From Rhizophagus irregularis (taxonomy: Eukaryota > Glomeromycota > Glomeromycetes > Glomerales > Glomeraceae), in contig NC_089447.1 of assembly GCF_026210795.1 (NCBI RefSeq), forward strand, positions 4,032,501-4,096,500: a stretch of DNA of 64,000 nucleotides, written 5' to 3'. The notes beneath the pieces are model-generated. The model searched no databases. It had not been told where the DNA came from and saw only the letters and a list, made by a program, of their open reading frames with translations. Numbering within the stretch: position 1 is the stretch's first letter; each line of letters starts with the position of its first letter. The translations under genes were made by a program, and so were the position numbers. This document shows positions 722 to 63,384 of this stretch, in pieces.

Positions 722-992
722 TATGATGCTATTCACCATCTATACATTATCTTTACTATACATAAAAAATAAAAAATGATAACTAGCGGTAGGACTTCGA
801 GGTAGTCATTTTACACTGGTGATGCTAACCATAATAAGCATACTTTGATTGAATCTACCAAGCGAGAGGTCCACACCTTCTATATAATCAGAAGTATGAT
901 ACTCCTCCGTAGCAAGTCCTATTGACCCCTTCTTCTCGGACTGGTGCTATTCACCACCTGTTAGACTTCATTGGAATATCATGTCCTTCTAT
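722..992 (+). repeat. 270-bp dispersed repeat, copy 1 (inverted partner of 6284-6552)
   Basis: This stretch is the near-perfect reverse complement of 6284-6552. Shared landmarks are GATGCTATTCACCA at one end, ACTAGCGGTAGGACTTC, and AGACTTCATTGGAATATCAT at the other end. Homology stops abruptly beyond 992 and before 722. The two copies flank a 5.8-kb segment holding two genes, so they could be the termini of a composite element, or simply two insertions of one short repeat. I found no convincing target-site duplication outside them. Confidence 0.75.
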
Positions 993-1074
993 AAATTTTC
1001 ACTAAAAAGTGGCCTTTATTTACCTATAAAATAAATAGTAAAGATAAAGTAAGTGAGAAGTCTATCAATTGCTG

Positions 1075-3924: not shown

Positions 3925-6283
3925 TAAACTTACCGTGTGTTTAAAAAAATAAAGTTTTAGTTCAGATCAAATAACTAAAATAAACAAGAGACGTCATAGA
4001 CGTCATGTGTATCATATGCGCCATGTGGTACTGTAATAAAAATAGAAAATCACGATCAATTCATAACTTATTTTATATATTTATATAATAAAATATTAAT
4101 CGTTTTAAGCTAATCTGCTTGAAATTTCACTGCTTTTTTTTATATCAGATTATGGAAAGCTGTTTATTTTTTTTTATTTTTTAGAGTCTTTTCTCATTCA
4201 TCATAGCAGTTTTTTGAAACTTTTTAACAGTAATTTAAAAAGAATATCTATTTTTCTGATTTTTTTATGAAGTCCGGTTGACCAAATGAGTGGAGTACAG
4301 TCATATGAAGTATTACGAAAATGTGATTTGTAAGAGTAATACGAAAAGGAGTGGTGTAAAAAAGTATAGTATATCACATGAAATAATCTACTCAACAATA
4401 TGATTTGTAAAATTGCGTATGTATAATAAATAATTATTGTATAATTTATTAAACTCTCCTGCAACTGATTTGATAATCGATAATAAAGTCAAAAAAAAGT
4501 CTTTCTTATTCCACGTAAAAGAAATATTATTTTTGTGTATATAGAATAATATTTCGCTAAAAGAAGCGCGTCAATTGAAATTGGCTAATTAAGAATTAGT
4601 ATTAATTAAAGATTTTAATAAAAAAATTCACAGTTGAGTATAAATAAATACAAATATACAATATTTTTTTCGTTTGATAATATACACTATTACAGTTGAG
4701 TATAGTTTTATTATCTAAATCATACACAAATATTGATTTCGCGCCATACTATACTTTTTTGGTTAACTCGATACCACTCCTTTTTTGTCTTACCGGATTT
4801 GTAAACCTACTATTATGTAATATTATATAACAAACACCTATTGTACATAAAATATACTATGAATTCGTTTTTGAATTTTAAACAATTTTTGCTTTTTAAT
4901 TTGTATTATAGAATTATCTAACATTTAAAAAGAACGTGAATTGAAAATAGAATATTTTAACTGTGAATATATAATGTACAATTAAATAATAAAAGTACAC
5001 AGGTATTAAGTTAAGTAGTACTGTATGGTAATACAAATTCGGACGGACTTCAATCCTTTTTGTTCGTACGTACGTTTCTAACAGATAAATTTAGTACGTA
5101 CGAATGCTTTAAAAAATTTTCGTACGACTTTGAATTTTCGTACAATTTTGAATTTTCATACATGATTTGTTTTTTAATAAAATACTATGTTAAAAAATAT
5201 AAATATATCAATAATACTCATAAATTTCCATTTTTTTTAACAATATTCAGTTCTATAATAATAAATTGACTCATAAAGTCATAATAATTATATAAACCTG
5301 TTCAAATTCAGGATTTACCAATTCAATTATAAAGTCGGATATATTATCAATATTCATATTTACAATTATTTTTCTTCTTCAAAGTAGTAAAGATTGTTTA
5401 TGACAAATATATAATAAATAAAACGCTAAAATCATTACATTACAAATATATAAATTAATCAGATCAATTATGTTATTCAAAATGTAATTGTACCATTTTC
5501 ATTATCGAAAGTTCTATTTCATGATGCTACGATGCAAAATTATTAGTACGGTAAATCAAAATTTATTTTTAATAGTCCGTTTGAGTACGGAAAAATTAAA
5601 AAATTTTTTCAGACGTACAGTACTATTTTGCTATATATTTTAGTGTACTTCAAAAATTTTATAACTGTACGTACTACTGAGTACAGTGTACTACTAGAGT
5701 ACCGTACTCAATCATTCGGTATAACGTAATGATGTTTGTTATATAATACTGAATATTCCCTATAATATTACTAAATTTAGAATAGTATTCCCATAAAAAT
5801 CCTTGTGTATTACTTAAACTGTCGCTTAATTAGGCAATTTGCCGTTAACTAGCCACTATTATATTCAGTTGAGAAAAAAAAATTTATTTTCGGCACCACC
5901 CAATTTTTTTTATTTCTCAATTTTTTTTTTATAAAATTTTTTTTTCTAATTTTTCAGAATGACTGGAATTTTGAACAAACAAACGAACTACAGTTAGTTC
6001 ATTTCATTTATTTTTTTTTTACTTTTCTTTTTATTATGAAGAATATATTAATATTTTTTTTCTTTTTTTTAAAGAACGAAAAAGAACGAACAGACAAAGT
6101 CCAAAATCGGTTCTATAACTATAGTACAGCCATATAGTCTAGTCAATTAATATCCCTACTTTCTATTTTATAGGCGTATAAAGTTCAATTTATCAAAATT
6201 TCACACTTCAATCTTTCAGGTTACTTTGAGTTAAATGGTAGAGAAGTGGGAAGGGGATAAACATTTCATTTTAGGGAAGCAGA
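3925..6283. repeat. gene-free AT-rich segment with weak inverted repeats
   Basis: No gene seen over 2.3 kb. A weak inverted pair shares ACTATACTTTTTT and CCACTCCTTTT words (about 4340-4375 and 4745-4785). GTAC-rich runs (CGTACGTACG and related words) occur at about 5065-5130 and 5580-5720, and poly-T tracts at 5870-6080. The predicted short open frames here are low-complexity chance frames. Confidence 0.4.
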
Positions 6284-6552
6284 ATTATAGAAGTACATGA
6301 TATTCCGATGAAGTCTAACAGGTGGTGAATAGCATCAGTCCGAGGAGAAGGGGTCAATAGGACCTGCTACGGAGGAATATCATACTTCTGATTGTATAGA
6401 AGGTGTGGACCTCTCGCTTGGTAGGTTCAATCAAAGTATGCATATTATGGTTAGCATCACCAGTGTAAATGACTACCTTGAAGTCCTACCGCTAGTTATT
6501 ACTTTATTATGTATAGTAAAAATAATGTATATAGTCATATGAATAGCATCAA
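6284..6552 (-). repeat. 270-bp dispersed repeat, copy 2 (inverted partner of 722-992)
   Basis: Reverse-complement copy of 722-992 with only scattered substitutions. In this orientation it reads GGTGGTGAATAGCATCAGTC near the start and ends at GAATAGCATCA. The copy contains GGTTCAATC, which resembles a pol III B box, but a matching A box at the right spacing is not convincing. It closes the 5.8-kb segment carrying the coiled-coil and zinc-finger genes. Confidence 0.75.
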
Positions 6553-6806: not shown

Positions 6807-7520
6807 CTATTAAAAAAAGAAAGAAAACGGTTAGTAATTGTTCAAATGAGAAAGAATTCAACAGTCTAAAAACACCCACTCACCACAGTCCGCTTGGGAA
6901 ATCCAGAATGAAATTCTATAAAATAAAAAAACGGTTAGTAACCGTTCTAGGAAAAGGAACTAACAGTCCAAAACCAACCTACTCACCATATAGAAGTTCA
7001 GAATGAAATGCTAAAAAAAAAGGAAAGAAAACAATTAGTAAGCGTTCAAGTGAGAAAGAATTCAATAGTTTAACACCACCCACTCACCACAAGTCCGCTT
7101 AGAAAATCCAGAATGAAATTCTAAAAAACAAAAAAACGGTTAGTAATCATTTTAGGAAAAGGAGCCAACAGTCCAACACCACTACTCACCACAAGTTCGC
7201 TTGGGAAGAGTCCAGGACGAAATGCTAAAAAAAAAAGAAAGGAATGGTCAATACCGTTCCTAGAAAGAAAATAAGAAAAAATCTGAACTCTACCTTAAAG
7301 AAAGTATATAAAAAGTTTACCAACCGACCCTATCTAAAAAAAATAAAAAGGAATGGTAAATACCGTTCTTAAAAGAAAAATGGAAAAAAAATTCTAAAAT
7401 TTACCTTAAAGGCATAAAAAAACATACCCGTTCCTATTTAAAAAGAAAAGGAAAAGGTATAGTTAAATACCATTTCTAAAGAAAAAAAAAATAAAAAAGT
7501 AAAAAAAAATCTTCGAAGCT
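6807..7520 (-). ncRNA. tandem exon-intron array on the minus strand
   Basis: Read on the minus strand, this is a chain of short exons and introns. Examples are introns 7087-7011 (77 nt), 6986-6916 (71 nt) and 6883-6807 (77 nt). Each has donor GTGAGT, an ACTAACCG-like branch region inside a short inverted repeat (CGGTTACTAACCG), a poly-pyrimidine tract and acceptor TAG. The exons between them are about 24-36 nt and are copies of one another (CATTTCATTCTGGA ... AAGCGGACTTGTG). Further units to 7520 use GTAAAT, GTAGAG or GTAAGC donors. The exons contain stops and carry no conserved frame, so a non-coding multi-intron transcript is the best reading. It points toward the minus-strand genes at 3831 and 2510 and could be their 5' leader. 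That link is inference. Confidence 0.6.
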
Positions 7521-9193
7521 TACCACAAAACGTAAAACTGGAATTATTAAAATTTTATTTTTTTGCCTCAGATCGAAATTGAGGCACCTCAGATTATCAA
7601 TAATTCACATTACGCACCTTACATGACGAATTCAATCTAAAGTGCGAACGAAGATTCATGTATTTAATGTATTTAAATTATCAGATTTATAATTAAGTTA
7701 AATCTGAAACAATTAGAATAAATCAATAATCAATCTTTTTAGTTTAGTCAGCCAATCAAAAAATTAAATAATCTCTGACATCATGACAGCGGCAAAAATT
7801 ATAATCATGTACAGTATTCTTCCGAAGAAATTTTCCTAATTCTACACAAGCTGAAGAAAAAATTTCACCCTAAGAATTACCATTCTTGGATTGAACCCGT
7901 GACTTAATAAATAAACATTGAACTTAAAATTTTTTGCAAGTATTTAGTTATTAAATTAGACTATATTATTTTATATCCTGCATACTACCGTGAAATTCGA
8001 AACTAGGATTTCCAACTCTTTCGTTCCATACTAAGATTACCGAGTTAATAGGTGCAAACCTGTTCATTTTACGTAAACAAACATTATATTATAATTCCAA
8101 CCTAAATTCTCTCGTTTTTTTCATTTTTTCTGACTCTTTACTAATCCAATTTCTAACCGCAGTTAATGTTTTAGGAACATCAACACCGTTATATAATCGA
8201 GATACCATTGATTGATTAAAACTAATATAATGTGTTGAATTACTCTTATTTCACGAGATACTCTATAATATTACTGTATATAATGATATATCTGATATTG
8301 TAGGTACTTTGAATTTCTATAGATACGTCTGAACTTAATCCAAAAATGGGTTCTTGGGGAAAATTTCTTCAGAAGAATACCTTCTTGAATCAACACTGCA
8401 TAAGTCATCGCACCCTACTGACCCCCTTGCTATAAAATATTTATTTATATTATGCAGAGGGGTGATGATTTGGTTACACGGGTCAGAAGGTAATTTTTGC
8501 ATAAACAACGTATAAAGCGTATAAAGTATAAATGTATAATCTATACGTGTCATATTACTATTTATTGAAAACTTGTTTTAAAACCTGCTTTTCTATATAC
8601 CGAGTTTTTGAAACCTGATTAGTAAATATTTTAATTGTAGTAAAAATACTGATTGTTACTTCACACTTTTTCAATCATATAAGAATTTTAAGAATTTGAA
8701 ACAAAAATAATAAATGCGAAACCTAACATCATCTATTTCGATAGCAAAATAACAAACGCACAAGTTTCTTTTTGGACAAACTCAGCTTTCATATCCTTGC
8801 ATACTCCACAAATTCATCTCGTAATATGCTGTATTATGTTATGTTATCCAATAACATTATTTGCAATAAAAAAATTAAGTGGTAAATACAAAATATATTG
8901 TGATAATTAAAATTACCTTCTTAAAGATTGTAATTATTTATTATTATTATTATTATTTTAGACTTTCAAAAAATGCAGGTTTAATTGGATTATTTTTACT
9001 GGTCATATTCAACTAGTATAAAATTTTCTTATACTGTAATACTACGTATAATGTATACTGTACTGTCTATAAACAAACAAATATTCTATTTTTGGTAATA
9101 TTGAATCTGACACGATTATTTATACAGCTATATTAGAGTTATATGATATAAAAAGTATGTAATTCAGTCCAAATTTAGCAGAAATAATTTTTT
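7521..9193. other. AT-rich intergenic sequence
   Basis: No gene seen. A TTA microsatellite lies at about 8938-8960. Two diverged copies of a TTCTTC-GAAGAAATTTTCC word occur in inverted orientation (7818 and 8358), the first next to a minus-strand GGGTTCAATCC that resembles a tRNA T-arm. This may be a decayed tRNA-derived repeat, but no tRNA fold could be completed. Confidence 0.4.
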
Positions 9194-11592: not shown

Positions 11593-11734
11593 TATTTTTT
11601 GGTTAGAGCGGTAGAATTAATTTATTTGTATTACATAGAAGTGATAGAACTGATTAAATAAATGATATATTAGTAACAATTTGTTATATTTGTTTTTCTT
11701 TGACAAATGGCTTGGATAGTTAGGACGTGTATTT

Positions 11735-13856
11735 TAAGTAAGAAATATTCTAACAATTCTCTTTTCCTTTTTCTTATATTTATAAGGACACCGGCTTTTT
11801 GGAATTTGACGAAACCACACTTTCAGTTAATGTATTTTAATGTTTTTTCTTTCCTTTTTTCTTGTAGAATTAAGTAATTTAATGCACATATAAAGCATTA
11901 AACTATATTTTATTCAGTGGAATAAACTTAACGAAGTATGTAAATGTTAGTATTTATTATTGTTTTTTTAAAGTTTTAATATTAATACTGTTTATTTTTT
12001 TAAAGCGCAATTTTCTTAGTTTCTTGAGAGGTAAATATACTTGGGTAGACACATAGCGTTTTTAGACTGGTATTAATGCTGGAACTAACATCTGGCAAGT
12101 ATAGTTTGGTAATATATGGTGACATAACTGCATTTTGAAAGGACATTAACTATTTTTCTATGTTCTTTTATCACTTTTAGATACCAACGAAGCGAGTGAG
12201 ATTGTACCGAAGCATTTTGAAGAAAACTGTTTTATATTTTTTAACTTTCCTATAAGGCAGTATAGACGTAAGTAATTTCTAATTTTTGTTGTGATGCAAT
12301 AACAATAAATAAATTTTTTTTAAAAAAAAAAAATCTTGTTGAATCAAGCCAACTAGACTATATTATTAAACAACGGGTAAGTCTTGGTAAAAACTAGAAG
12401 AGCATTTTTTTATTTCTTTCATTTTTTGTAACTAATTACTGCGTTCTTTTTTTTTTAGTTTCGTAAAAAAAATATAGTTTATAAATGAAAGGCTCGGGAA
12501 TGTTTGAGATATCAATCCGTAATCGTATTAAAACAATATTCTGGGTGGATTGATGATCTTAGACGGTTTGCTCTTCAGGTATTTGGACGTGTGGAAATCT
12601 GGTAGTACGAATATCCATATTTTTAGGCTTATTAAATGCCTTATCTGTTATATATATTCTTTTTATTTAAATCGTGAAACGCTTATTTATAACGTTCTAT
12701 TTTTTTTTTCTAGATTTCGGGTTATTTAATTTTATAGTTTCGGAATGTTTTGATTGCCAATTGAGTGAATCAGGTAAAACATTTCTAAATTTTCGGTTCT
12801 ATTATTATTATTACCCTCTCCGTCGTTCTTATGTATTTATTTTTATAGATCTCGACGAAATTGATGACGCCTAAAGAATTTGTTAGATAAGTTTAGTTTA
12901 GGTTCAAGATTGAAGTGGTAAGTTTCGCAATAATTGGGAATTTTATTTTATTTTATTTTAAATAGAAACGTCATCTAACGTTTCTTTTTTTTCCTTTTTG
13001 TAGGTTTCGGACTTTTAGGTTAATGGGAAAGTGATAGTGGTAAGCTTTGCGAAATTGTATAACGAAACGTCTTACCAACGTTTCGACTTTCTCTTTTTGT
13101 TAGACAGCTGACTGGACACGTGAGATTTTCTACGTAGGTTTTAGATTCGGGTTGGGGACTCTTGAAATTTAAGTTTCGCAGCATCCAGTTGCGAAACAGT
13201 TTTTATACGTTTCTTAATTTTATTTTTTTTTTTGTAGGTCCTCCGGAGTAACGATTAGAAACGCTGGACTTGGAAATGGTAAATTTCCTTACTATTCTCT
13301 TTTTTTTTTTAATAAAAATAACGTTTCTTTTTTTTTGTTTTTGTAGATCTTTCGGGTTTCAGTTTGAGTGCTGAAAACTTTACGTAGCTATTTTGCGGTG
13401 TCAGCTACGTAACTAGCAAGGGGGAGGAGTATTTAACAACATTTCAAGGTAAGGATAAAGTGCGATTTTAATGTGCAGTGTATCTATTTTTTTTTTTTGA
13501 CTATCATCGATTGATCATATCTCACTGATCGTTTTCTATTTATTTATTTATTTATTTATTTTAGATTTTCGGCATTTACCGGTCTTTTCTTCTCTAGGTT
13601 GGCTGATAAACTGAATAGGTAGATCGGTAAAGTATTTTTTTCTGCTTTGTATTTTGTTTCACTTTTCATTTCTTGCACTAAATTCTTTTTTCATTAGATC
13701 TTCCGGTTGATACAAGTAAAACGAAAAAAGAACATGATTATTATGCTTAGGAAATGAACATCAAAAAATGACATAGTAGTAGAAGGTGAAACAAACTGCT
13801 TTTTTTACTATTTCTTTAAGAAACGTTACTATCGTTCTTAATGTGTTTTTTCTTAG
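11735..13856 (+). ncRNA. long exon-intron array on the plus strand
   Basis: At least six consecutive intron-like units can be delimited: 12918-13003, 13040-13103, 13279-13346, 13449-13564, 13627-13697 and 13786-13856. Each has a GTAAG/GTAAA/GTGAA donor, most have a TAAC/TAAT branch word within or near a GAAACGT...ACGTTTC inverted repeat, and all have a pyrimidine tract and TAG. Earlier units are visible at about 11740-11787 (before exon GACACCGGCTTTTTGGAATT) and 12770-12848. Exons are about 35-175 nt, stop-rich in all frames, and share words such as GGTTTCGG and TTTCGG. No protein frame links them. This looks like the exon-intron chain of a non-coding transcript or a very long UTR. It is cut on the right by mitochondrial DNA. 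Confidence 0.6.
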
Positions 13857-13864
13857 ATTTTTGG

Positions 13865-14164
13865 AGATCCGCTAGGGCTGTTAACCCGCGCGCAAATGGA
13901 ATCGCTGCGGCTTCATGAAAATGGCTAATGACAGGGTAATGAAAGGAAGATTACCTTATTAGCGTGACTGGGGATTACAGCTTCCTTAAACAGAAGTTTC
14001 AACCCATCAGCAAAAGGTTGAAGAATCCCGTAAAACCCTACGACATTAGGTCCTACCCTTCGTTGCATAGAAGCCATTACTTTCCGTTCAGCAAGAGTCA
14101 TGAAAACAATACTCCCTAACAAAGGTAGTAGAATTATGAAGGATTCCAGTAAGAAGAATAGCAT
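13865..14164 (-). pseudogene. nad1: mitochondrial NADH dehydrogenase subunit 1, N-terminal fragment
   Basis: The frame opening at 14164 encodes the N-terminus of complex I membrane subunit ND1, with hallmark words [29 protein letters not shown] and [11 protein letters not shown]. The frame is lost after about residue 75. Homology resumes in another frame as AIPFARGL and ADLQ down to about 13865, so there is at least one frameshift before the gene is truncated. An intact ND1 has over 300 residues. It belongs to the mitochondrial insertion and cannot be functional in the nucleus. Confidence 0.9.
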
Positions 14165-14401
14165 ATTAAACAGATTGGGAAGATTAACTTCTAAGTAGGA
14201 AATAAATCAATAAGTAAGGGGTATTTTCAATAATAAAAGTGGAGTAAGTACATCAGATAGAGACTGGGTAGTTAGTGAGGGGAGTAGATATAAGGAAGAG
14301 TGTAACTATTTTATAAGTAACCAAGCCAAGGTTGGCAACAGTGAGAGGAATACCTTGATTTTATCTTAGGAATCAAATAATATCAAGTTAATAGATGCTA
14401 T
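14165..14401. other. mitochondrial intergenic sequence within the NUMT
   Basis: Sequence between the nad1 start and the tRNA copy. No gene recognised. Confidence 0.5.
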
Positions 14402-14471
14402 CAGGAGAGGGAGGAATCGAACCCCAACAAGAAGCTTGGAGCTTACCATTTTACTATTAAACTACTCTCCT
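14402..14471 (-). tRNA. trnW: mitochondrial-type tRNA-Trp (CCA), nuclear copy
   Basis: On the minus strand the acceptor AGGAGAG pairs with CTCTCCT. A D-arm (GTTT/AAAT), an anticodon loop CTCCAAG with T at position 33 and anticodon CCA, and a T-loop TTCGATT are in the expected order over about 70 nt. The anticodon stem has a mismatch and a G-T pair, and the T-stem has one mismatch, which may reflect decay after transfer. It lies between nad4 and nad1 remnants on the same strand, as expected for a contiguous mitochondrial piece. Expression in the nucleus is doubtful. Confidence 0.75.
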
Positions 14472-14538
14472 TATTGGCTATCCTTTTCGTTGCTTAGCAA
14501 GTATTGGTTAAAAAGGGAGTTTCCTAGATTAGCCCGTT

Positions 14539-14895
14539 CTAACTACGGGAGATTTTGGAATAAATAAGGGATGATACAGAAAAATCTAGGATGACGAAAG
14601 GAACAATACCTAGTACGAAAATTAACAGAAGAAAAGGAAGTAGTATGAAGAACTCTCTTAGAGATATCTAGAACGAGGATAAAGGTAACGGCTACTCTAC
14701 TGCAAGCCGATTGTTGTAAGTCCAAATAGTATACGGTACAGTTAAGGCTACTGAGGAAGAGGCCAATATGGTGATAAATGGGTTTCGTTGATAGGCACCT
14801 GCAAAAGAAAGGAACTCTCCTAAGAAGTTAGCCGTTAGTGGTACTGCCATATTAGCTAGACAGAAAATGAAAAACAGAGAAGAGCGATTGAAGTG
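14539..14895 (-). pseudogene. nad4: mitochondrial NADH dehydrogenase subunit 4, C-terminal fragment
   Basis: On the minus strand, reading from about 14895, one frame encodes LANMAVPLTANFLGEFLSF, then YTIWTYN, then REFFILLPFLLLIFVLG and SVSSLIYS, ending at a stop at 14539. These are the conserved C-terminal helices and tail of ND4. Two in-frame stops interrupt the frame after NNRLAVE and before ISLREF. The alternative open frame 14725-14543 is a shadow. This is a relic inside the mitochondrial insertion. Confidence 0.85.
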
Positions 14896-14996
14896 TCTCT
14901 ATTACAAGTAGCGATATCAAGAAAGATTTGACAGCGAAAATATTACCGGATTGGTAGGTTGGGAGTACCAAGGATACGAGTAGGTATTTTGTTGTT

Positions 14997-15625
14997 TGCT
15001 GGAGTCGAACCAACTGGAACTTGTCCACACCTTGAACAACAAATAAGAACTATAGTACGTTTTCATTTATTCAATATTGACTTAAGAAGTATAACACTTA
15101 ATTTCTTTTTTTAGGAACGGTTAGTTTTACCTTTAAACCGGTTGATGTTAATTGTAGAAATAATTAATAATCTTGTAAGTTTTTTTTAGTGGAGTGAATA
15201 TGCAGTATGTGGTGTAATAGCATTATAAATGACATTAATCCTCCCTTTTTTTTATTTTTTAGATTTTGAACAGACTTTTCTAGAAGATTAAACAAGTTTC
15301 CTAAATGTGATGGTATAATGGTGTTAAAGACATTTATTAATGTCTTTTTTTTATTTTAGGTTTCAGATTTTCTGAAAGATTAGAAGATTAAGTGATAAAA
15401 GTAAGTTTTTTGGGGGTAAACGGATGAGTAATGACTGTATTATAAATATTATTAATACCTTTTTCATATTTTTCAGATTTGGACTAAATTAAAATGATCT
15501 AAGGATTTCTGCAATTTGGAGTCGTGAAGAATTTAAAAGTTTAATAAAAAACTATGGAGTCAAGCCAGCTGGAATTACATTCACACCATAAACAACAAGT
15601 AAGAAGACTAAAGTAAACATGCATT
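14997..15625 (+). ncRNA. exon-intron array resumes right of the NUMT
   Basis: Two similar exon-like segments (about 14999-15050 and 15556-15605) share GGAGTC..GCC/ACC..CTGGAA, CACACC and AACAACA, the second ending at a GTAAG donor. Between them are intron-like stretches with acceptors ATTTTTTAG at about 15262, TTATTTTAG at about 15359 and TTTTTCAG at about 15477, with GTGATG and GTAAGT donors and ATTAATG branch-like words. The exon word GGAGTCGAACCAACTGG first looks like a tRNA T-arm, but it recurs as an array exon (also a diverged copy at about 12340), so it is not a tRNA. The two array halves were probably continuous before the mitochondrial DNA inserted. Confidence 0.5.
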
Positions 15626-20850: not shown

Positions 20851-22715
20851 ATGACATTAGAATTCCTAGAAAAAATTGATACAGAAAAAATTTTTACGAA
20901 AAAAGATAAACATAAAGCTGATATATTCTCATCTAATGATAAAACTTCCGTCGTTGAAGATAAAGATAATAATAGCGAATCATCAAATGATGTATTAATT
21001 CAAATATTTGATATCTCTAAAGTTGATCGTCCACATATAGTAGATTTATGCTCAACAAAAAAAAGTGTTTTACCCAGAGCTTTAGAAAATGTTCCTCTTA
21101 TTTCCCCTTCTATAAATTATTTAAGTTATTTTATACAAGTTTTACAACATTTAATTCTTACAATAATATTTGATTGGACCGCAATTATTACTCACCCCGT
21201 AAATTTCTTATTAACCTTTGTATTTTTTCCTACGTCTGCTATAATATTATTCTTTCTTGAAATTATTTTAAGATTCATATCTTTTTTAAATTTGGACTCT
21301 AATAATGAAACCGTTTTACAATCTTGGTCTAAATTAATACCTTTAACTGAATTATGTAAGTGATAAAATTATGATAATAATATTGAAAAAAAAAACAAAA
21401 AAAAAGATTATAATCTTAATTATTTTTATTTTTTTTTGCAGTGGCGAATCTTCGTTCAGGAATGGAATCTTTAGATCAACATCCTACATCAGATATTCAT
21501 AAAGGATTTAATTTAGATCGAACACAATTCTTGTTATTTCTTTCAACTATCATGTACGAGAGAAACGAAAAACAAGTTATTAAAGCTTATCGAATGATTT
21601 CCAAAATGAAAAAGGATATTAATAATAAAAGTGATGAAGATTTACAAACCGTTTATAAAATTCTTAAAGAAAGTGAAAAAAATATAAGAGATCAAATAAA
21701 AGATTTTGATCTTCAATTCACTTCACTTTCCGAATTAAATACTCTTGGAGGTCCTTATGTTGGAATGTTTTGGTCTGAAGAAAGAAATTTTATAACTATA
21801 GCTTGTAAAGGTACAACTCCAACTAATTTTAGTGAATGGTTAACAAATGCATCATTTCAACGTACGGATGCAAGAGCTTTTTTATTTGGTGAGGTTCATC
21901 AAGGTTTTTATAGTCAACTTTTCCCTATTAACGATTATGAATCAGCAAAACTTGATAGAAATTGTCCTGCAACAAGAATTATTAAAGCTGTTAATCAAAA
22001 AAGTGAAGAAATTAGAAATAAAAACATGGAAAAAAATAATATAAAACTTAAGGATACCCCTTTAGTAAATATTTATGTCACAGGTCATTCATTAGGTGGT
22101 GCATTAGCCAATTTATTATACGGTAGATTATTAAAATATCCTCGATGTTTAGGTGAACATTGTATATTAAGAGATGGTACAACTTTTGCAAGTCCATCAA
22201 TTGGAGATTCGGATTTCGCTGCAGAATTTTCATCATTATGTAATCGTTCAATTGAGGAATATAAAACATTATGGAGAATTGTATGTGATAGTGATATCGT
22301 ACCACGTGTTCCAATTGGTCATAATAATCCAAAATTACGAAGATATACTCAAAAAATACATATAATGAATTATTTTCATGTTGGTGATGAAATAAGGTTT
22401 TATCAAGATGGTACTAGACCTTCGTCTATGCGTGATATTTTTAGTGATAATAAAGAATTATTATTCCTTGAACATGGTTTAGGTTGGAATGAATGGAAAA
22501 GTTTATTTGGTCTTTATGATCCTCTTGATGATAAAAAACATCATATTAAATCTTCTTTCGATCCTAGATATAATACAAGTTTAATACCTATTGAAAGATT
22601 ATTATTACCTTTTATTCGTAACCATATGACTCATCGTTATCTTGCTGCTTTGGAAAAATCTAGAAAATTTTTTAATAATAATATAGTTGTTAAAGGAGGT
22701 GATAATATAGTTTAA
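20851..22715 (+). CDS. membrane-anchored class 3 lipase-like protein
   Basis: Exon 1 (20851-21355), a GT-AG intron (GTAAGT to TTTGCAG) and exon 2 (21442-22715) give 592 residues in phase. The alpha/beta-hydrolase nucleophile elbow is GHSLGG (Ser near residue 384, preceded by NIYVT). The likely acid is in VCDSDIVPRVP (about residue 453), and a His in NHMTHRYLAAL near the C-terminus (about 565-570) fits the third triad position. ITIACKGT provides the oxyanion-side strand. Residues about 95-150 are strongly hydrophobic (two or three membrane segments around ILTIIFDW and FLLTFVFFPTSAIILFFLE). The first 80 residues are charged and probably cytosolic. A role in triacylglycerol or other lipid-ester hydrolysis at a membrane is inferred from the family. 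No premature stop or frameshift. The second exon alone would lack the membrane region, so the two-exon model is preferred. Confidence 0.88.
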
Positions 22716-47177: not shown

Positions 47178-47745
47178 GTAAGCAGGTATTCTTTTTTAAA
47201 TTTATTATAACTTTTAAGAAACATTTTCTAACGAAAAATGAAATATTATAGGGATACCAGCTTTCTTGGAATTGATGAAACTGGAATTTACATATAAACG
47301 GACAGGTAAAAGGAAAGTTTTTTAAAAAAAATTTAATGTTTTAAGAAACATTTTTAACGTTTCTTTTTTTCTTTTTTTTCGTTTGTAAGGATACTGGCTT
47401 CTTGGTATTGGACTTAAGACGAAATGGCACCTGAAAAAGAAAGGTTAAGTCTTTTTTTGTTGCTTCTTTCATTTCTATACTAACTCGTTGCTAATGTCTT
47501 TCTTTCTTTTTTTAGATCTTTGTCTTTGGTATTTTAGGAATAAAGATCTGGTGAAAGGTGAGTGAAATGGAGGATTTTTTAATTATTTTTGGTTATAGAA
47601 CATTTACTAATGTTCTATATATTTTTTTGTAGTAATAACTTCTTGAAGACGAAATCGGCACTTGAACGTGAAATGTAAATGTGAGTTTTACTTTTCTTTA
47701 GTTACAGAACATTTGCTAACATTCTTTCCTTATTTTTTTTATAGT
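47178..47745 (+). ncRNA. exon-intron array upstream of the hAT gene
   Basis: Introns 47178-47251 (74 nt) and 47306-47389 (84 nt) are clear, followed by three or more ending near 47516, 47632 and 47744. Donors are GTAAGC, GTAAAA, GTTAAG, GTGAGT, GTGAGT; branch-like words are TTTTCTAACG, CTAACTCG, TACTAATG, GCTAACATT; acceptors are TAG or AAG after long pyrimidine tracts. Exons are diverged copies of GATACTGGCTTCTTGG, and one is also present at about 11788 in the left array. The array ends about 330 bp before the hAT ATG (48075) on the same strand, so it may be a spliced leader region of that gene or an independent non-coding transcript. Confidence 0.62.
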
Positions 47746-49031
47746 GACGATTTCTTGGAGATAAAATTAACACTTGTGTCACAATGTGTCCTTCACTTGA
47801 CTAAGGGGTTTTTATAAAAAAAAAGGTCATAATCTTATTTTATATATCACGAGAGTGATATTTTAACTTATAAGTATAAAGATAATGAGGGTTGTCTATC
47901 ATGAGATGTTCTGTGTAATTTTAACGATAAATTTGTGTAATTTTAATTTATTTTAATTATCTCGATTAAGAAAATTCTGCAATGTTAATTAGATTAAAAA
48001 ATCGTCATCATTCCAAAAAATCCTCACAATGTGTCATTTTTTGATAAAAAAAAATTTTTTTATTCTCTATAAAAATGACTACTAATAAATGCAAAGAAGG
48101 TCGTCCGCAGAATGAAGTATGGGAGCATTATACGCAAGGCGAGCGTAATTCAGAAGGGCATGCAAGTGGGACTTGTAAATTTTGTAAAAAAATTTTTAGT
48201 AGAGGTGATGTGTCTACATTACAGAGACATATTGCAAACCATTATCCAAACGCCCTACCTCACTTAATTCAAAATTATCAAAAAGTATTTGAAGAGAAAG
48301 CGAACAACAATAATAAAAAAAGAAAATTTTCTAATCAAACATCTTTATATGATTATCACGATGCTGATGAACCACTTTCTCAAAGAAGAATTGATAGAAT
48401 CAACAGAACTTTGTTAAAATTCTTTGTATGTTGTGGAATATCTTTTCGTGTAGTAGAATCACCATTTTTTACAGATTTTATCAATGAACTTAACGTTGCA
48501 TATGACCCTCCATTTCAGGAACTATTGGCCAATTGCTTATTTAAAGATGAATTAGGGAATGTTAATTCTAAAATTCATAAAGAATTGCAAATGTCAGACA
48601 ATTTAACACTAGGTATGTTACTTAAAAAAAATTTTTGATAAAAATCTATTAATATATTTAATTTATATTTAATTTTTAATATTAGCTTTAGACGGGTGGT
48701 CATCTTCTAACCATAGATCTATATAACAGGGCGGACATCTCTATTTTATCACGATTTTGCCGATTATTTTGCCGATTATTTGTTGATTATTTATTCAATC
48801 TTATCACATAAGAAAAATACTATTATTAGTTATTTTTTTGCAAAATTTACATAATAATCTATACTAAAATCTTAATAATAGCTTAACTTTACTTTGGAAT
48901 TATAGTATATTAATTTTCACCTAAATCAGAATATTATTAAGCAACTTTACTAATGGCAACTTTTTATAATTTAATAAAAAATAAGTATTTTTATTAAAAT
49001 TAAAATAAAATAAAGGATTTTTATCTATTAT

Positions 49032-54614: not shown

Positions 54615-56303
54615 TAGTGCTCTACACGAGCCAAACTGGCTCATGAGCTGGCTCAAGCTTTTCAAGCTGAGCCAAGCCAAGCCATGATTAAATTGGCTTG
54701 GTGGCTCACGAGCCAGCTTGGAAGAGCTCGAGCCAGTTATTAGGCTCAGCTCAAAAAGCTCGAGCCTGTAACAGACTTAGCTCAAAAAGCTCGAGCTGGC
54801 TCATGAGCCAAATGAGCTATTATACAAAAAATGTTGCAAAACGTTTTTATATAATAATGCATGCATAAACGAAATGTTTTTGCAACTTTTTTTCATTGTT
54901 TATTAAAGAACGTTGTGAAAACATTTATTTAAGTTTTTACATGTAAAATTGAAAAAAAAAACGCTGGAACTAATGATTCCAGCATTTTTACATGTAAAAT
55001 TGAAAAAAAATGCCGGAACTAATGATTCCGGCATTTTTACATGTAAAATTGAAAAAAAAAATGCCAGAACTAATGATTCTGGTGTTTTTACATGTAAAAT
55101 TGAAAAAAAAATGCTGGAACTAATGATTCCAGCGTTTTTACATGCAAAATTGAAAAAAAATGCCGGAATTAATGATTCCGGCGTTTTTACATGTAAAATT
55201 GAAAAAAAAATGCCAGAACTAATAATTCTGGCATTTTTACATGTAAAATTGAAAAAAAATGCCGGAACTAATGATTCCAGCGTTTTTACATATAAAATTG
55301 AAAAAAAAACGCCAGAACTAATAGTTTCAGCGTTTTTACATGTAAAATCAAAAAGAAACTGCCGGAACTAATAATTTCAGCGTTTTTACATGTAAAATTG
55401 AAAAAAATGCCAGAACTAATGATTCCGGCGTTTTTACATGTAAAATTGAAAAAAAAATGCCGAAACTATCAGTTTCAGCGTTTTTACATGTAAAATCAAA
55501 AAGAAAAACACCAGAACTAATGATTTCGGTATTTTTACATGTAAAATTAAAAAAAAATGCCAAAACTAATAGTTTCAGCGTTTTTACATGTAAAATCAAA
55601 AAGAAAAATGCCGGAACTAATTATTCTGTCATTTTTACATGTACAATCGAAAAAAAATGCCGAAACTATCCGTTTCAGCGTTTTACATGTAAAATCAAAA
55701 GAAAAATGCCAAAACTATCAGTTTCGGCGTTTTTACATGTAAAACCAAAAAGAAATACGCCAGAACCAATTATTCTGGTGCTTTTACATGTAAAATCAAA
55801 AAAAAAATGCCGAAACTATCAGTTTTGGCGTTTTACATGTAAAATCAAAAGAAAAATGCCGAAACTATCAGTTTTGGCGTTTTTACATGTAAAACCAAAA
55901 GGAAATACGCCGGAACCAATTATTCCGGTGCTTTTACATGTAAAATCAAAAAAAGAATGCCGAAACTATCAGTTTCAGCGTTTTTACATGTAAAATCAAA
56001 AGGAAAAATGCTGAAACAAATAGTTTTGGCGTTTTATATAAATATAAAAGTAAAAAATGTTTTGCAACGTTTTTTTTAATAATTTAAAGTAAAAACGGTG
56101 CAAAAACGTTTTTATGATAAAGCTTGAGCCAGCTCGAGCCCAGCTTGGCTCAAGCCAGGATTTTTATGGCTCAGCTTGGCTCGAACTGAACTAAGCCAAG
56201 ATTTTTTGTGGCTCGGCTCATTTCAGGCTTGGCTTGGCACAGATCTTCAAGCCGAGCCAAGCCAGACTGTAGCTCGGCTCGAGCCGACTCATGTAGAGCA
56301 CTA
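54615..56303. mobile_element. 1.7-kb hAT-like TIR element filled with hairpin minisatellite
   Basis: Ends TAGTGCTCTACACGAGCC and, inverted, TAGTGCTCTACATGAGTC. The flanks are ATAATAGT on both sides (54607-54614 and 56304-56311), although the surrounding TAATAATAG microsatellite weakens that 8-bp match. Subterminal regions are dense in GAGCC/GGCTC words (AGCTCGAGCC, TTGGCTCA). There is no transposase inside. It sits directly after the hAT transposase gene. Confidence 0.8.
54940..56040 (+). repeat. ~21 copies of a 51-bp hairpin unit
   Basis: Each unit holds the palindrome TTTTACATGTAAAA, an A-run, and an imperfect hairpin of the form GCCGGAACTAATGATTCCGGC. The hairpin stems vary between units in a compensated way (CTGG/CCAG, CCGG/CCGG, CCAG/CTGG). 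The long open frames on both strands here (for example 54949-55371 and 55457-55993) are products of the repeat and not genes. Confidence 0.9.
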
Positions 56304-56950: not shown

Positions 56951-58150
56951 AGGACCCCGAATAATACTGATATAACTCACAAACGGGTTTGCGTAGAGTT
57001 TATATGAAATTACTTTTTAAACCCATAAATTGAGTTTGCGTAGATCGGTCAATTTTGGGATAACTCACATATCACGTTTGCGTAGAGTTTATAAATATAT
57101 TGCATTATATGTTAATCAATTGTATAATATTGATAAAAATTAAGTTGCGCAAAACCATTAAGGATGGGTCCGTAATATATTTATGAAATTTGCAATATTA
57201 CGGATTTTGGTAATTAATTGTATATAGTAATAAAAAGTAATGCATTTCGCATTATTTTAATATTTTTTAATAAAAAAAAAGTGCGAAATGCACTTACTTT
57301 AACAAAAAATGGTGAATTTCGCACCATTTTATTAACATTTTAATAGAAAAAAGTGCGAAACGCACAATTTTAATAAATAATTGGTGAGTTTTGCACCATT
57401 TAATTAATATTTTAATATAAAAAAGTGCGAAACGTACCATTTTATTAATATTTTAATAGAAAAAGTGCGAAACGCACCATTTTATTAATAATTTAATAGA
57501 AAAGTGCGAAACACACCATTTTAACAAAAAAATCGGGAGTTTCGCACATTTTATTAATATTTTAATATAAAAAAGTGCGAAACGCAACATTTTAACAAAA
57601 AAATGGAGAGTTTCGCACCATTTTATTAATATTTTAATATAAAAAAGTGCGAAATGCACCATTTTGACAAATAAATGGAGAGTTTCGCACCATTTTATTA
57701 ATATTTTAATATAAAAAAGTGCGAAACGCACCATTTTGACAAATAAATGGAGAGTTTCGCACCATTTTATTAATATTTTATTATAAAAAAGTGCGAAACG
57801 CACTATTTTAACAAATAAATGGTGAGTTTCGCATGATATTATTAATATTTTAATAGAAAAAGTGTGAAACGCACCATTTTAACAAATAAATGGTGATTTT
57901 CGTACCATTTTATTAATATTTTAATAGAAAAAAGTGCGAAACACACTATTTTAATATAAAATGATAAGGTTGGCATGATTTTATTAATATTTTAATAGAA
58001 AAAATGTGAAATGAATTATATTAGTAACAAAAATTTTTTTGAACTAAGATTTGGATTTGCGTAGCGTTACTATGAAAAAAAAGTTGCGTAGAGTTAATAG
58101 TAAATGCATGCCGATCATTTGTGAGTTATATTAGTATTATTTGGGGTCCT
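56951..58150. mobile_element. 1.2-kb AGGACCCC TIR element inserted in an array intron
   Basis: Ends AGGACCCCGAATAATACTGA and, inverted, AGGACCCCAAATAATACTAA. The 8-bp duplication CTAACATT is perfect (56943-56950 and 58151-58158). Subterminal GTTTGCGTAGAG words occur at both ends. Same terminal family as the 13.9-kb element. No transposase inside; the centre is a 72-bp tandem array. Confidence 0.92.
57240..58010 (+). repeat. ~11 copies of a 72-bp GTGCGAAAC hairpin unit
   Basis: Consensus blocks GTGCGAAACGCACCATTTT, ACAAATAAATGG, AGTTTCGCACCATTTT and ATTAATATTTTAATA recur with a 72-bp period (for example GTGCGAAA at 57648 and 57719). GTGCGAAAC and GTTTCGCAC in each unit can pair as a hairpin. 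The minus frame 57803-57453 (repeating FVKMVRFALFY) is a repeat artefact. Confidence 0.9.
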
Positions 58151-58639
58151 CTAACATTCCTCTTTTTTCTCTAGAAAATTACAATGGCTCCTGTCTTGAA
58201 ATTTAACGAAATGGTAGGTTAGAGAACGTATTTTATAAGTTTTTTTTTTATTGTATAGAAACGTTAATAACGTTTCTTTTTCTTTTTGTAGGGTTGCTAG
58301 ACAAATACTATAACCAAACTTTAAATTAGGTAAAAAGGGACCAGGAAAGGGATTTTTCGTGTTTTTTATTTAAGAAACATTATTTTAAAACATTTCTTTT
58401 GGCTTTTCTTTTTTATAAAGTTGTCAGACATCATTTTAAAACAATTCATTGTACATATTAAACATCAATAAATAATATAAATAATTAATTAATCCAATCT
58501 TAAATACAATTTCAGATACAACTATAATAATTAGTTAATAATATAATAAAATTCGTATATTTTTATATTTTTAAATTTGTATTAGTCATATAATATCTTT
58601 TTTAACATAAATATAGTTAATTTATTAGTAAATTTAGTT

Positions 58640-62718: not shown

Positions 62719-63384
62719 GTACGGTATGAATTTGCAAACCTGTACGGTACAGTTGATCAAATTTTGTGATAATCATTCTGTACCGTACCGTACTGATTCT
62801 ATATATAAAGAGATTATTATAGAACCAGTACGGTACAGTACGAAATGATCAACCATAAAATTTAACCAACTGTACTGTACCATACTGGCTCTATAATAAT
62901 CTCTCTATATATAGAACCAGTACAGTACGGTACAGTTATTATTTTAAATGGACATTTTGGATATTAGTGTCCAAATTATTAAAATGAATATTTTGGATAT
63001 TGGTGTCCAAATTATCAAAATGAACATTTTGGATATTGGTATCCAAATTATCAAAATGAACATTTTGGACATTGATGACCAAATTATCAAAATGAACATT
63101 TTGGACATTGATGACCAAATTATCAAAATGAACATTTTGGATATTGATGTCCAAATTATTAAAATGGACATTTTGGATATTGGTGTCCAAATTATTAAAA
63201 TGAACATTTTGGACATTGGTGTCCAATTATTAAAATGGACATTAGTGTCCAATTAATTATATGCTAAATGTACCATACTGATTTTCTTTTTATTATAGAT
63301 ACAGTACGGTCATGTTAATCAAATTTTATAATTTTGTATGAGGTGATCAACTGTACTGTACAGGTTTGCAAATTCATACCGTAC
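62719..63384. mobile_element. 666-bp TIR element with GTACGGTATG ends
   Basis: Terminal inverted repeats of about 42 bp begin GTACGGTATGAATTTGCAAA and continue through CCTGTAC-GTACAGTTGATCA at both ends with one or two differences. Further inverted AGAACCAGTACGGTACAG words lie inside at 62831-62935. The target duplication is not clear. The core is a 36-bp tandem array. No coding gene. Confidence 0.82.
62948..63256 (+). repeat. ~8 copies of a 36-bp TTTGGACATTGGTGTCCAAA hairpin unit
   Basis: The unit ACATTTTGGATATTGGTGTCC plus AAATTATCAAAATGA repeats every 36 bp. Each unit contains TTTGGACA..TGTCCAAA, a hairpin. Because 36 is a multiple of three, it yields long open frames in three frames on both strands, which are artefacts. 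Confidence 0.92.

What the first reader, a model, noticed from the sequence alone, without database searches (positions are those of the whole stretch)
6807..7520. Tandemly amplified exon-intron units: candidate new class of intron-rich non-coding transcript
Seen directly: on the minus strand, copies of one 24-36-nt exon alternate with 71-77-nt introns (7087-7011, 6986-6916, 6883-6807) having GTGAGT donors, an ACTAAC branch region, a pyrimidine tract and TAG. The exons carry stops and no shared frame. The same architecture appears at five other places in the window on both strands. Known: these four signals in this order define fungal spliceosomal introns. Inference: an exon plus its intron is the unit of tandem duplication, giving RNAs whose product is mostly splice junctions. 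I know of no described fungal repeat of this kind.
Basis: partly seen in the sequence, partly recalled or inferred. Interest (0 to 1): 0.85.

Follow-up and report, generated by a model that had tools for sequence, protein, structure and literature searches.

The report
Tandem exon-intron arrays inside fungal transposons
In a fungal genome, at least two unlike kinds of jumping gene carry head-to-tail rows of tiny exon-plus-intron units that seem to code for no protein; the row in this window is a decayed piece of one such element, and if the rows are really spliced they may be a previously undescribed way for jumping genes to look like ordinary genes.

Summary
On the minus strand at 6807-7523 four clear and about three degenerate units (24-35-nt exon, 69-77-nt GT-AG intron) lie head to tail. 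The locus is a decayed copy of the ~1.3-kb terminal inverted repeat (TIR) of a Ginger2-like DNA transposon. Eight paired long-TIR copies in the same genome carry inward-facing arrays at both ends; a sister family has an ordinary 126-128-bp TIR and no array. Two further, distantly related array families are dispersed: F3 (159 exact copies of its branch hairpin), read in full in two TA-flanked, pogo-like elements, and F4 (182 matches to its donor-hairpin pattern). Exon lengths mix reading frames. Splice-signal columns vary less than the rest: F4 mean 0.7% against 11.9%, F3 0.8% against 8.4%, F1 6.1% against 14.0%; rank tests are modest (p 0.006, 0.026, 0.053). F4 branch hairpins keep a branch motif in 30 of 36 distinct variants (permutation mean 6.7, maximum 17). 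No RNA data were available, so transcription and splicing are inferred. Best reading: splice-competent leader arrays in DNA transposons, perhaps boosting expression or evading silencing. A new class of non-coding transcript is possible but unproven.

The parts
7549..7646 (-). remnant of the outer part of the transposon TIR (86% identical to positions 48-143 of the L010 TIR)
   Evidence: G000:C19:4040049-4040146, minus 4032500
7225..7523 (-). outer part of the array: about three degenerate exon-intron units, each with an inverted repeat at the putative branch site, pyrimidine tract and AG
   Evidence: by eye
7190..7224 (-). exon of 35 nt
7121..7189 (-). intron GTGAGT..TTACTAAC..TTTTTTAG
7088..7120 (-). 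exon of 33 nt
7011..7087 (-). intron GTGAGT..TTACTAAT..TTTTTAG
6987..7010 (-). exon of 24 nt
6916..6986 (-). intron with perfect branch-site inverted repeat AACGGTTACTAACCGTT
6884..6915 (-). exon of 32 nt
6807..6883 (-). intron GTGAGT..TTACTAAC..TTTAATAG
47306..47745 (+). second array in the window (similar exons, branch-site hairpins) upstream of a zf-BED ORF 48075-48638; related to family F3
11720..13730 (+). third array in the window, related to family F4
58121..58420 (+). short array of about three introns (AGAAACGTTAATAACGTTTCT branch hairpin), followed by AATAAA; weakly related to F4

Best explanation
The array is a decayed copy of a leader built from tandemly amplified exon-intron units that sits in the long TIR of a Ginger2-like DNA transposon. 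In intact elements the unit array lies just inside the terminal ~130 bp at both ends and points inward. A transcript starting near either end would run through short (mostly 21-41-nt) exons separated by introns of about 70-95 nt and, from the left end, into the integrase (transposase) gene. A typical intron has GTRAGT or GTAAAT, a hairpin holding the branch motif at the 3' side of its loop, a pyrimidine tract and TAG. Other families (F3 in pogo-like non-autonomous elements; F4, a dispersed multi-exon unit distantly related to F3) have the same plan. Shown: anatomy, tandem unit, TIR location, orientation at both ends, lower variation of donor and acceptor columns, mixed exon lengths. Inferred: transcription, splicing, and the role. 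The most likely role is a spliced leader that raises expression or nuclear export of element transcripts and/or makes them look like host genes to intron-sensing silencing; the branch hairpin would help the spliceosome find each intron.
For: Paired elements with inward arrays: 8 TIR pairs; I read six of them at least in part (L009, L010, L011, L014, L024, L025), the other two (C15 and the second C3 pair) are known from matches only. TIR alignments of 1280-1389 columns at 97.9-98.8% identity within L009, L010 and L011. H2C2 and rve integrase domains in L010; integrase matches lie between all 8 TIR pairs, some broken or split. Of 16 loci scanned for exact TGTTGTGCCTCAG ends, 7 have both, and 6 of these have matching 4-bp AT flanks; L017 does not. 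Sister family L028/L029 (61% identical integrase segment) has 126-128-bp TIRs; L028 has a ~230-nt leader with no array. Array not needed for movement: 8 paired ~500-bp elements match the TIR only over the outer 70-95 bp (one of the 8 read in full). F4: donor GTAAGT or GTGAGT in 100 of 104 distinct units; YTRAY in 30 of 36 distinct branch hairpins (93 of 104 units) against a permuted mean of 6.7, maximum 17 in 1000; donor GT varies in 1.9%, +4 to +6 in 0%, AG in 0.5%, exon 12.0%, other intron 13.7%. F3: donor GTAAGT in 98 of 104 distinct units. F1: GTAAA or GTAAT in 60 of 65; YTRAY in 19 of 19 distinct 20-nt branch hairpins, from the 46 of 65 units with one of that length. The genome holds 198 palindromes TTTCGCAAY-N5-RTTGCGAAA; 182 matches of the longer pattern begin in GTRAG; reversed controls 0. 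Precedents: introns counteract HUSH silencing (PMC8770142 abstract); poorly spliced transposon transcripts feed RNAi in Cryptococcus (PMC5851062 passages).
Against: No RNA data. No intron-less copies of joined exons were found in the genome (F4: 0 matches; F3: one single-mismatch match, probably chance; F1 not tried), so there is no DNA footprint of splicing. The rank tests are weak, units are not independent, and many other columns are equally quiet (39 of 99 in F4, 45 of 79 in F3, 43 of 85 in F1). As columns, the F4 CTAAC (9.6%) and F1 CTGAC (13.3%) motifs vary about as much as the rest. A 12-13-bp stem overlapping the donor in F4 might hinder U1 (inference). G-U against A-C counts in stems do not separate RNA from DNA palindromes: F4 h1 53 v 15, of which 27 G-U fall at donor +3; F1 15 v 11; F3 4 v 26. 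The C18 copy of the window locus has lost a donor and part of an intron. F4 is not shown to be a transposon. F3 and F4 unit models cross-match weakly (best E 1e-05 and 4.9e-05, reversed controls 0), so they may share an origin and are not two independent cases.
Confidence: 0.5

Rival explanations
1. The units are subterminal binding sites (palindromes) for transposase or host factors, amplified in tandem as in other DNA transposons; the splice-like signals are by-products and the arrays are not spliced.
For: Typical units carry one or two palindromes, up to 12-13-bp arms in F4. In F1 they lie at both ends of the element. Stem arms stay complementary through changes on both sides (F4 h1 pair 12: 54 T-A, 44 C-G). 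G-U versus A-C counts do not prove an RNA structure. In F4 the hairpin-2 columns vary less (7.7%) than exon or other intron columns.
Against: 8 paired ~500-bp elements that match only the outer 70-95 bp have spread; the one read has no array. Donor, pyrimidine tract and AG are strand-asymmetric, and donor and AG columns are among the quietest. F4 branch loops change by indels but mostly keep YTRAY.
Confidence: 0.2
2. The arrays are passive: an intron-bearing leader or non-coding gene duplicated by unequal exchange within elements and copied with them. Splicing may happen but the number of units has no selected role.
For: Neighbouring units are near-identical (L056: 12 copies of a 111-nt unit at 97% match). 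Unit number varies among copies (4 to 14 near-full units in the 22 F3 stretches fetched, some of which cut the array). Decayed copies lose signals.
Against: The same plan occurs in at least two groups without detectable sequence relation (F1 against F3/F4); array matches lie at both ends in 8 of 8 paired F1 elements; signal columns vary less than others on average.
Confidence: 0.25
3. Transcripts act as a decoy for branch-site or other splicing factors, as proposed for the vertebrate RNA Gomafu.
For: Many near-perfect branch motifs in tandem on one RNA; Gomafu carries tandem UACUAAC repeats that bind SF1 (PMC3116199, abstract).
Against: Gomafu is described as carrying the repeats in a non-coding exon (title of PMC3116199); here each branch motif is embedded in an intron-like unit with donor and acceptor, and excision would remove it.
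Confidence: 0.05
4. The units are introners: mobile introns that insert singly into host genes, seen here in nests.
For: Related introns in many copies; two of the 24 listed F3 clusters are single sites.
Against: Copies come as head-to-tail arrays including the exon. Of 159 exact F3 sites the 100 listed fall in 24 clusters, 22 with two or more sites, each on one strand (counted by hand). Of 20 candidate introns in chaperonin and proteasome genes only 1 has a branch hairpin with stem score 7 or more.
Confidence: 0.05

Closest known systems
Ginger2/Tdd DNA transposons (PMC2836005, passages read)
   Same: TGTNR-type ends (TGTTG), 4-bp AT-rich target duplications, H2C2 zinc-binding plus rve integrase domain
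   Different: Published Ginger2 TIRs are about 50-180 bp; here about 1.3-1.4 kb, largely filled with exon-intron units. The sister family in this genome has 126-128-bp TIRs. No phylogeny was made.
Introners / introner-like elements and proliferating stwintrons of fungi (PMC9860276 passages; PMC8469720 abstract)
   Same: Repeated fungal introns with canonical signals and, for stwintrons, internal symmetry
   Different: Those insert singly into genes; here exon plus intron is amplified head to tail in leaders or inner parts of DNA transposons
Gomafu/MIAT RNA with tandem UACUAAC repeats (PMC3116199, abstract)
   Same: Many branch motifs in tandem on one non-coding transcript
   Different: Bare motifs in an exon, not complete introns; vertebrate
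Introns and silencing of mobile elements: HUSH (PMC8770142 abstract); SCANR in Cryptococcus (PMC5851062 passages)
   Same: Provide a reason why a mobile element would profit from well-spliced introns
   Different: Host surveillance systems, not arrays; neither was tested in this fungus
Tandem subterminal repeats of plant DNA transposons (titles and abstract starts only; otherwise recalled)
   Same: Tandem repeats just inside the ends, sometimes in transcribed leader sequence (recalled)
   Different: Not known to me as complete exon-intron units
Yeast intron 'zipper stem' that aids splicing (PMC12311795 abstract)
   Same: Secondary structure near donor and branch site can enhance splicing
   Different: A single regulated intron; here a small hairpin encloses the branch motif in most units

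Membership tests
U2-type spliceosomal introns | GT donor, branch motif, pyrimidine tract, AG acceptor in order | tested here: met
   Window: 4 of 4 clear introns. F4: GTRAGT in 100 of 104 units; YTRAY in 30 of 36 distinct branch hairpins. F3: GTAAGT in 98 of 104.
U2-type spliceosomal introns | removed from RNA in cells | not testable with these tools
   No RNA reads. Search for intron-less joined-exon copies of F3 and F4: none convincing.
Ginger2-like DNA transposon (intact relatives of the window locus) | TGTNR ends | tested here: met
   TGTTG/CAACA in the 7 of 16 scanned loci where both exact ends were found
Ginger2-like DNA transposon (intact relatives of the window locus) | 4-bp AT-rich target duplication | tested here: met
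   Matching 4-bp flanks in 6 of those 7 loci (TATA, TTTA, AAAA); L017 does not match
Ginger2-like DNA transposon (intact relatives of the window locus) | H2C2 zinc-binding and rve integrase domains | tested here: met
   PF17921 E=6e-07 and PF00665 E=1.7e-09 in L010, both over cut-off
Ginger2-like DNA transposon (intact relatives of the window locus) | TIR of about 50-180 bp (reported range, PMC2836005) | tested here: not met
   1280-1389 aligned columns; met by the sister family, 126-128 bp. Hence 'Ginger2-like', not filed as a member.
Ginger2-like DNA transposon (intact relatives of the window locus) | integrase groups with Ginger2 in a tree | not tested
   No tree made
pogo/Tigger-like element (F3 host element; label recalled) | TA target duplication and CAGT-type inverted ends | tested here: met
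   TA flanks and CAGTC..GACTG ends at 2 of 2 loci read in full (L056, L058); no empty site was compared
pogo/Tigger-like element (F3 host element; label recalled) | DDE transposase | not tested
   Non-autonomous copies; no autonomous relative was sought
Introner | single copies inserted as introns of host genes | tested here: inconclusive
   98 of the 100 listed F3 sites lie in clusters; host genes were sampled only in 20 candidate introns

The most novel reading that the evidence does not exclude
DNA transposons of at least two unrelated kinds in this fungus have acquired tandem arrays of tiny non-coding exons and hairpin-branch introns, so that each transcript undergoes many splicing events and yields almost no product: splicing itself is the function (an 'intron passport' against intron-sensing silencing or for export), the array can pass between kinds of element as a module, and the F4 units are free-standing genes of this kind. 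This would be a new class of intron-rich non-coding transcript.
Probability: 0.26. Interest if true: 0.88.

Novelty: new variant of a known kind. Interest (0 to 1): 0.66.

Why it matters
If the units are spliced, transposons in this fungus have turned the spliceosome into part of their own expression machinery more than once. That gives a natural dose series (about 4 to 14 near-full units per F3 stretch read) for asking how intron number affects expression, export and silencing of mobile DNA. It would also supply ready-made, mobile exon-intron units for intron gain, and a natural test of whether a hairpin around the branch site helps splicing. It affects genome annotation too: such arrays could be misread as multi-exon genes or as unclassified repeats.

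Tried and rejected
Coding repeat: thought unlikely. F3 exon lengths fall in all three classes mod 3 (59, 51, 22 of 132), F4 likewise (7, 45, 31 of 83, which leaves out L098 because it lies inside L099; with it gave 7, 49, 34 of 90), and window exons are 35, 33, 24 and 32 nt. In L010 the 24-nt exons are open in all frames (read by eye), so a coding use in F1 alone is not formally excluded.

Known RNA family: the window gave only a tRNA at gathering thresholds.

Generic structural intron scan of the window: no excess over the Markov background, so it was not used as evidence.

F3 and F4 unit models cross-match weakly, with no match in reversed controls, so I count two unrelated groups (F1 with the window locus and L022; F3 with F4). 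I lowered the probability of the novel case from 0.28 to 0.26 for this.

Branch hairpins as a general feature of host introns: I used 29 of 43 chaperonin segments and 11 of 26 proteasome segments, which gave 28 neighbouring pairs from 12 genes; 20 pairs from 7 genes gave a candidate intron, 8 gave none (7 of these on the minus strand). 1 of 20 has stem score 7 or more, 0 have 8 or more. Some of the 20 (very long or low-scoring) are doubtful; this control is small.

RNA versus DNA palindrome by G-U/A-C ratio: inconclusive. The F4 branch-hairpin tally in that call was out of register and was dropped.

Genomic footprint of splicing (joined exons): none for F4, one weak match for F3; F1 was not tried. 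Viral contigs: one match of the F4 junction pattern (L100); in the 309 bases read around it no array is visible and I take it as chance; none for the F3 exon.

Rows dropped before counts: nhmmer hits not covering nearly the whole unit model, and identical units (F4 253 hits, 111 near-full, 104 distinct; F3 147, 142, 104; F1 87, 80, 65). F1 branch hairpins other than 20 nt long were left out (46 of 65 kept). The rank tests left out columns in T runs of four or more and donor position +3; branch columns entered the F3 test only, AG columns the F4 test only. Seeds for the models were chosen from arrays with typical exon starts, so they lean towards good units. F3 stretches read: 22; F4: 22, of which L098 lies inside L099; they were picked from the listed places, not at random.

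Full report
What is at the locus. On the minus strand, 6807-7523 is a head-to-tail array. Four clear introns (7121-7189, 7011-7087, 6916-6986, 6807-6883) have GTGAGT, ACTAAC or ACTAAT, a pyrimidine tract and TAG. Exons are 35, 33, 24 and 32 nt. The region 7225-7523 holds about three more degenerate units (by eye). The branch motif lies in a small inverted repeat, perfect in 6916-6986 (AACGGTTACTAACCGTT). The window is 27% G+C, so single matches to such signals mean little; a generic scan was no better than a Markov background.

The locus is part of a transposon end. A search of the window's own genome (146.7 Mb, 32 contigs; by size and base composition I take it to be Rhizophagus irregularis, which is recalled and not tested) found the array at 98% on C21 and 90% on C18, and related arrays in inverted pairs a few kb apart. 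The C21 and C18 copies belong to segments of at least 8-9 kb that match the window at 93-96%, so they are copies of the same event. The inverted pairs are elements of about 5 kb: L009, L010 and L011 have TIR alignments of 1389, 1280 and 1299 columns at 98.3, 98.8 and 97.9% identity. Searching with the L010 TIR gave 77 matches (40 of 133 candidates scored, so a lower bound): eight long-TIR pairs (two on C3, one each on C2, C8, C12, C15, C17 and C27; one C3 pair spans 12 kb), shorter relatives, the window locus with its C21 and C18 copies, and eight ~500-bp paired elements that match only the outer 70-95 bp (one of them read: no array). In the window, 7549-7646 is the remnant of the outer TIR.

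What element it is. L010 encodes an H2C2 zinc-binding domain (PF17921) and an rve integrase core (PF00665). Integrase-segment matches lie between all eight TIR pairs, some broken or split. Of 16 loci scanned, seven have both exact ends (TGTTG..CAACA); six of these have matching 4-bp AT flanks and L017 does not. This fits Ginger2 (PMC2836005, passages) except for TIR length: 50-180 bp reported, about 1.3-1.4 kb here. A sister family (61% identical integrase segment) has TIRs of 126-128 bp at 98-100%; in L028 the start codon, recognised by eye from the shared MEY..FIS start, lies about 230 nt from the end without an array. So the array was gained inside an ordinary Ginger2-like end, or lost in the sister.

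The units in intact elements. In L010 the inner units are exons of 24 nt, then GTAAAT, ~50-60 nt (longer in one), AGAACGGTACTGACCGTTCT, a T-rich tract and TAG. The array faces inward at both ends, so the left one would form the leader of the integrase transcript. Of 65 distinct near-full F1 units, 60 keep GTAAA or GTAAT at the donor (54 GTAAAT, 3 GTAAAA, 3 GTAATA) and five have the site deleted or changed. 46 units had a branch hairpin of exactly 20 nt; its 19 distinct forms all contain YTRAY.

Other families with the same plan. The two best further arrays in the window (47306-47745; 11720-13730) led to two large dispersed families. F3 has a 111-nt unit; L056 carries 12 copies at 97% match. 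Its branch hairpin AAGAACATTTACTAATGTTCTT occurs exactly 159 times in the genome, 0 times for the reversed control; the 100 listed sites form 24 clusters, 22 of them with two or more sites, each cluster on one strand (counted by hand). At the two loci read in full (L056, L058) the array lies in an element of 2.4 and 1.7 kb with CAGTC..GACTG ends and TA flanks, pogo/Tigger-like by recall. F4 has a ~125-nt unit with two hairpins: one begins inside the donor (GTAAGTTTCGCAATGTTACATTGCGAAACTT), the other holds the branch motif. In L099 the F4 array follows a CT-rich stretch and is followed by AATAAA motifs, as for a small non-coding gene. L057 has a Plavaka transposase ORF beside an F4 array, on the opposite strand, but F4 itself was not shown to be mobile. 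A cross-check of unit models: F1 does not match F3 or F4; it matches the window locus (E 1.6e-05) and a piece of L022 (E 9.7e-05). F3 and F4 match each other weakly across exon and intron (22 and 14 hits, best E 1e-05 and 4.9e-05; reversed controls 0). So there are at least two unrelated groups, and F3 and F4 may be old cousins in different surroundings.

Are the splice signals kept? F4, 104 distinct units: donor GT differs from consensus in 1.9%, +4 to +6 in 0%, AG in 0.5%, against 12.0% in the exon, 13.7% in the rest of the intron, 12.2% in hairpin 1 and 7.7% in hairpin 2; the CTAAC columns differ in 9.6%; donor +3 differs in 27%, almost only A to G, which keeps a good donor. F3, 104 units: 0.4-1.5% in donor, branch motif and hairpin, against 8-9% elsewhere. 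F1, 65 units: donor 7.7% and 3.8%, against 10-15%; its branch columns are as variable as the rest (13%), but the changes keep YTRAY in the hairpins counted. Column rank tests (T runs and donor +3 left out): p = 0.006, 0.026 and 0.053. These are modest, the units share ancestry, and 39 of 99, 45 of 79 and 43 of 85 other columns are as quiet as the noisiest signal column. Two further tests: F4 branch hairpins differ by indels and substitutions, yet 30 of 36 distinct forms keep YTRAY, against a permuted mean of 6.7 and a maximum of 17 in 1000; and the genome holds 198 palindromes TTTCGCAAY-N5-RTTGCGAAA, while the longer pattern beginning in GTRAG has 182 matches. The second is partly explained by shared descent.

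Controls and negatives. Exon lengths mix frames: F3 59/51/22 of 132 and F4 7/45/31 of 83 in classes 0/1/2 mod 3. Host introns seldom have such hairpins: 1 of 20 candidates with stem score 7 or more, a small control drawn from part of the segments found. Stem changes do not favour G-U over A-C consistently, so RNA hairpin and DNA palindrome cannot be told apart. Joined-exon copies, which would prove splicing through retroposed RNA, were not found for F4; F3 gave one single-mismatch match; F1 was not tried. The C18 copy of the window locus has lost one GT donor and most of one intron, as expected of a dead remnant.

How it most likely works. The ~500-bp elements that match only the outer 70-95 bp argue that the arrays are not needed for transposition. 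That points to a role in expression. I infer that transcripts start near the element end, are spliced through the array, and so gain what introns give: better expression or export, or escape from silencing that senses missing or poor introns. Precedents are HUSH, where introns counteract repression even without splicing (PMC8770142, abstract), and Cryptococcus, where poorly spliced transposon transcripts feed RNAi (PMC5851062, passages). A structure that brings the donor near the branch site enhances splicing of a yeast intron (PMC12311795, abstract). None of this was tested in this fungus. I put about 0.75 on the units being splice-competent in vivo and about 0.35 on the expression or anti-silencing role.

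Is it new? Searches of the paper library listed nothing that, by title and abstract start, describes tandem exon-intron units in transposon ends; only the listed papers were screened in this way, and subscription journals are largely missing. The study of transposons in R. irregularis (PMC11075540, abstract start and passages) says that two thirds of the elements remain unclassified; the word intron does not occur in its main text. The introner survey (PMC9860276, passages) has no occurrence of Rhizophagus or Glomer in its main text. I rate it a new variant of a known kind (intron-bearing leaders and subterminal repeats of DNA transposons), with a real chance of being a new class.

Noticed in passing
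window 13925-15050: Apparent nuclear copy of mitochondrial DNA: fragments matching NADH dehydrogenase subunit 1 (PF00146) and a Proton_antipo_M protein of the subunit M/4 type (PF00361, TIGR01972), with a tRNA at 14402-14471.
   Followed up: partly
L028 4126-6857 and L029 2084-4811: Sister Ginger2-like family with nearly identical 126-128-bp TIRs, probably young; no array in the L028 leader.
   Followed up: partly
L015, L016, L017, L018, L019: Short derivatives (L017 about 1.7 kb) with inverted arrays at both ends; on one side the array runs into what looks by eye like the C-terminal part of the integrase gene.
   Followed up: no
L021 (G000:C16:4917200-4919323): An array-bearing copy that runs into a telomere-like TTAGGG repeat at the contig end.
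   Followed up: no
G000, e.g. C1:326974, C3:1730999, C9:2899013: Other GTRAGTTTCGCAAC-GAAAC-GTTGCGAAAC palindromes that look isolated in the listing, not in the F4 ~125-nt spacing; perhaps a further related family.
   Followed up: no
window 54933-56011, 57245-58011, 62938-63243: Three other tandem arrays, periods 50, 72 and 36 nt; units of the first two contain short inverted repeats (by eye).
   Followed up: no
window 850-1000 and 6260-6420: A similar stretch seen by eye in opposite orientations; window 716-994 matches L012 and L013 at 89% beside the array segment.
   Followed up: no
window 21441-22715: ORF with a class 3 lipase domain (PF01764, E=2.6e-19).
   Followed up: no
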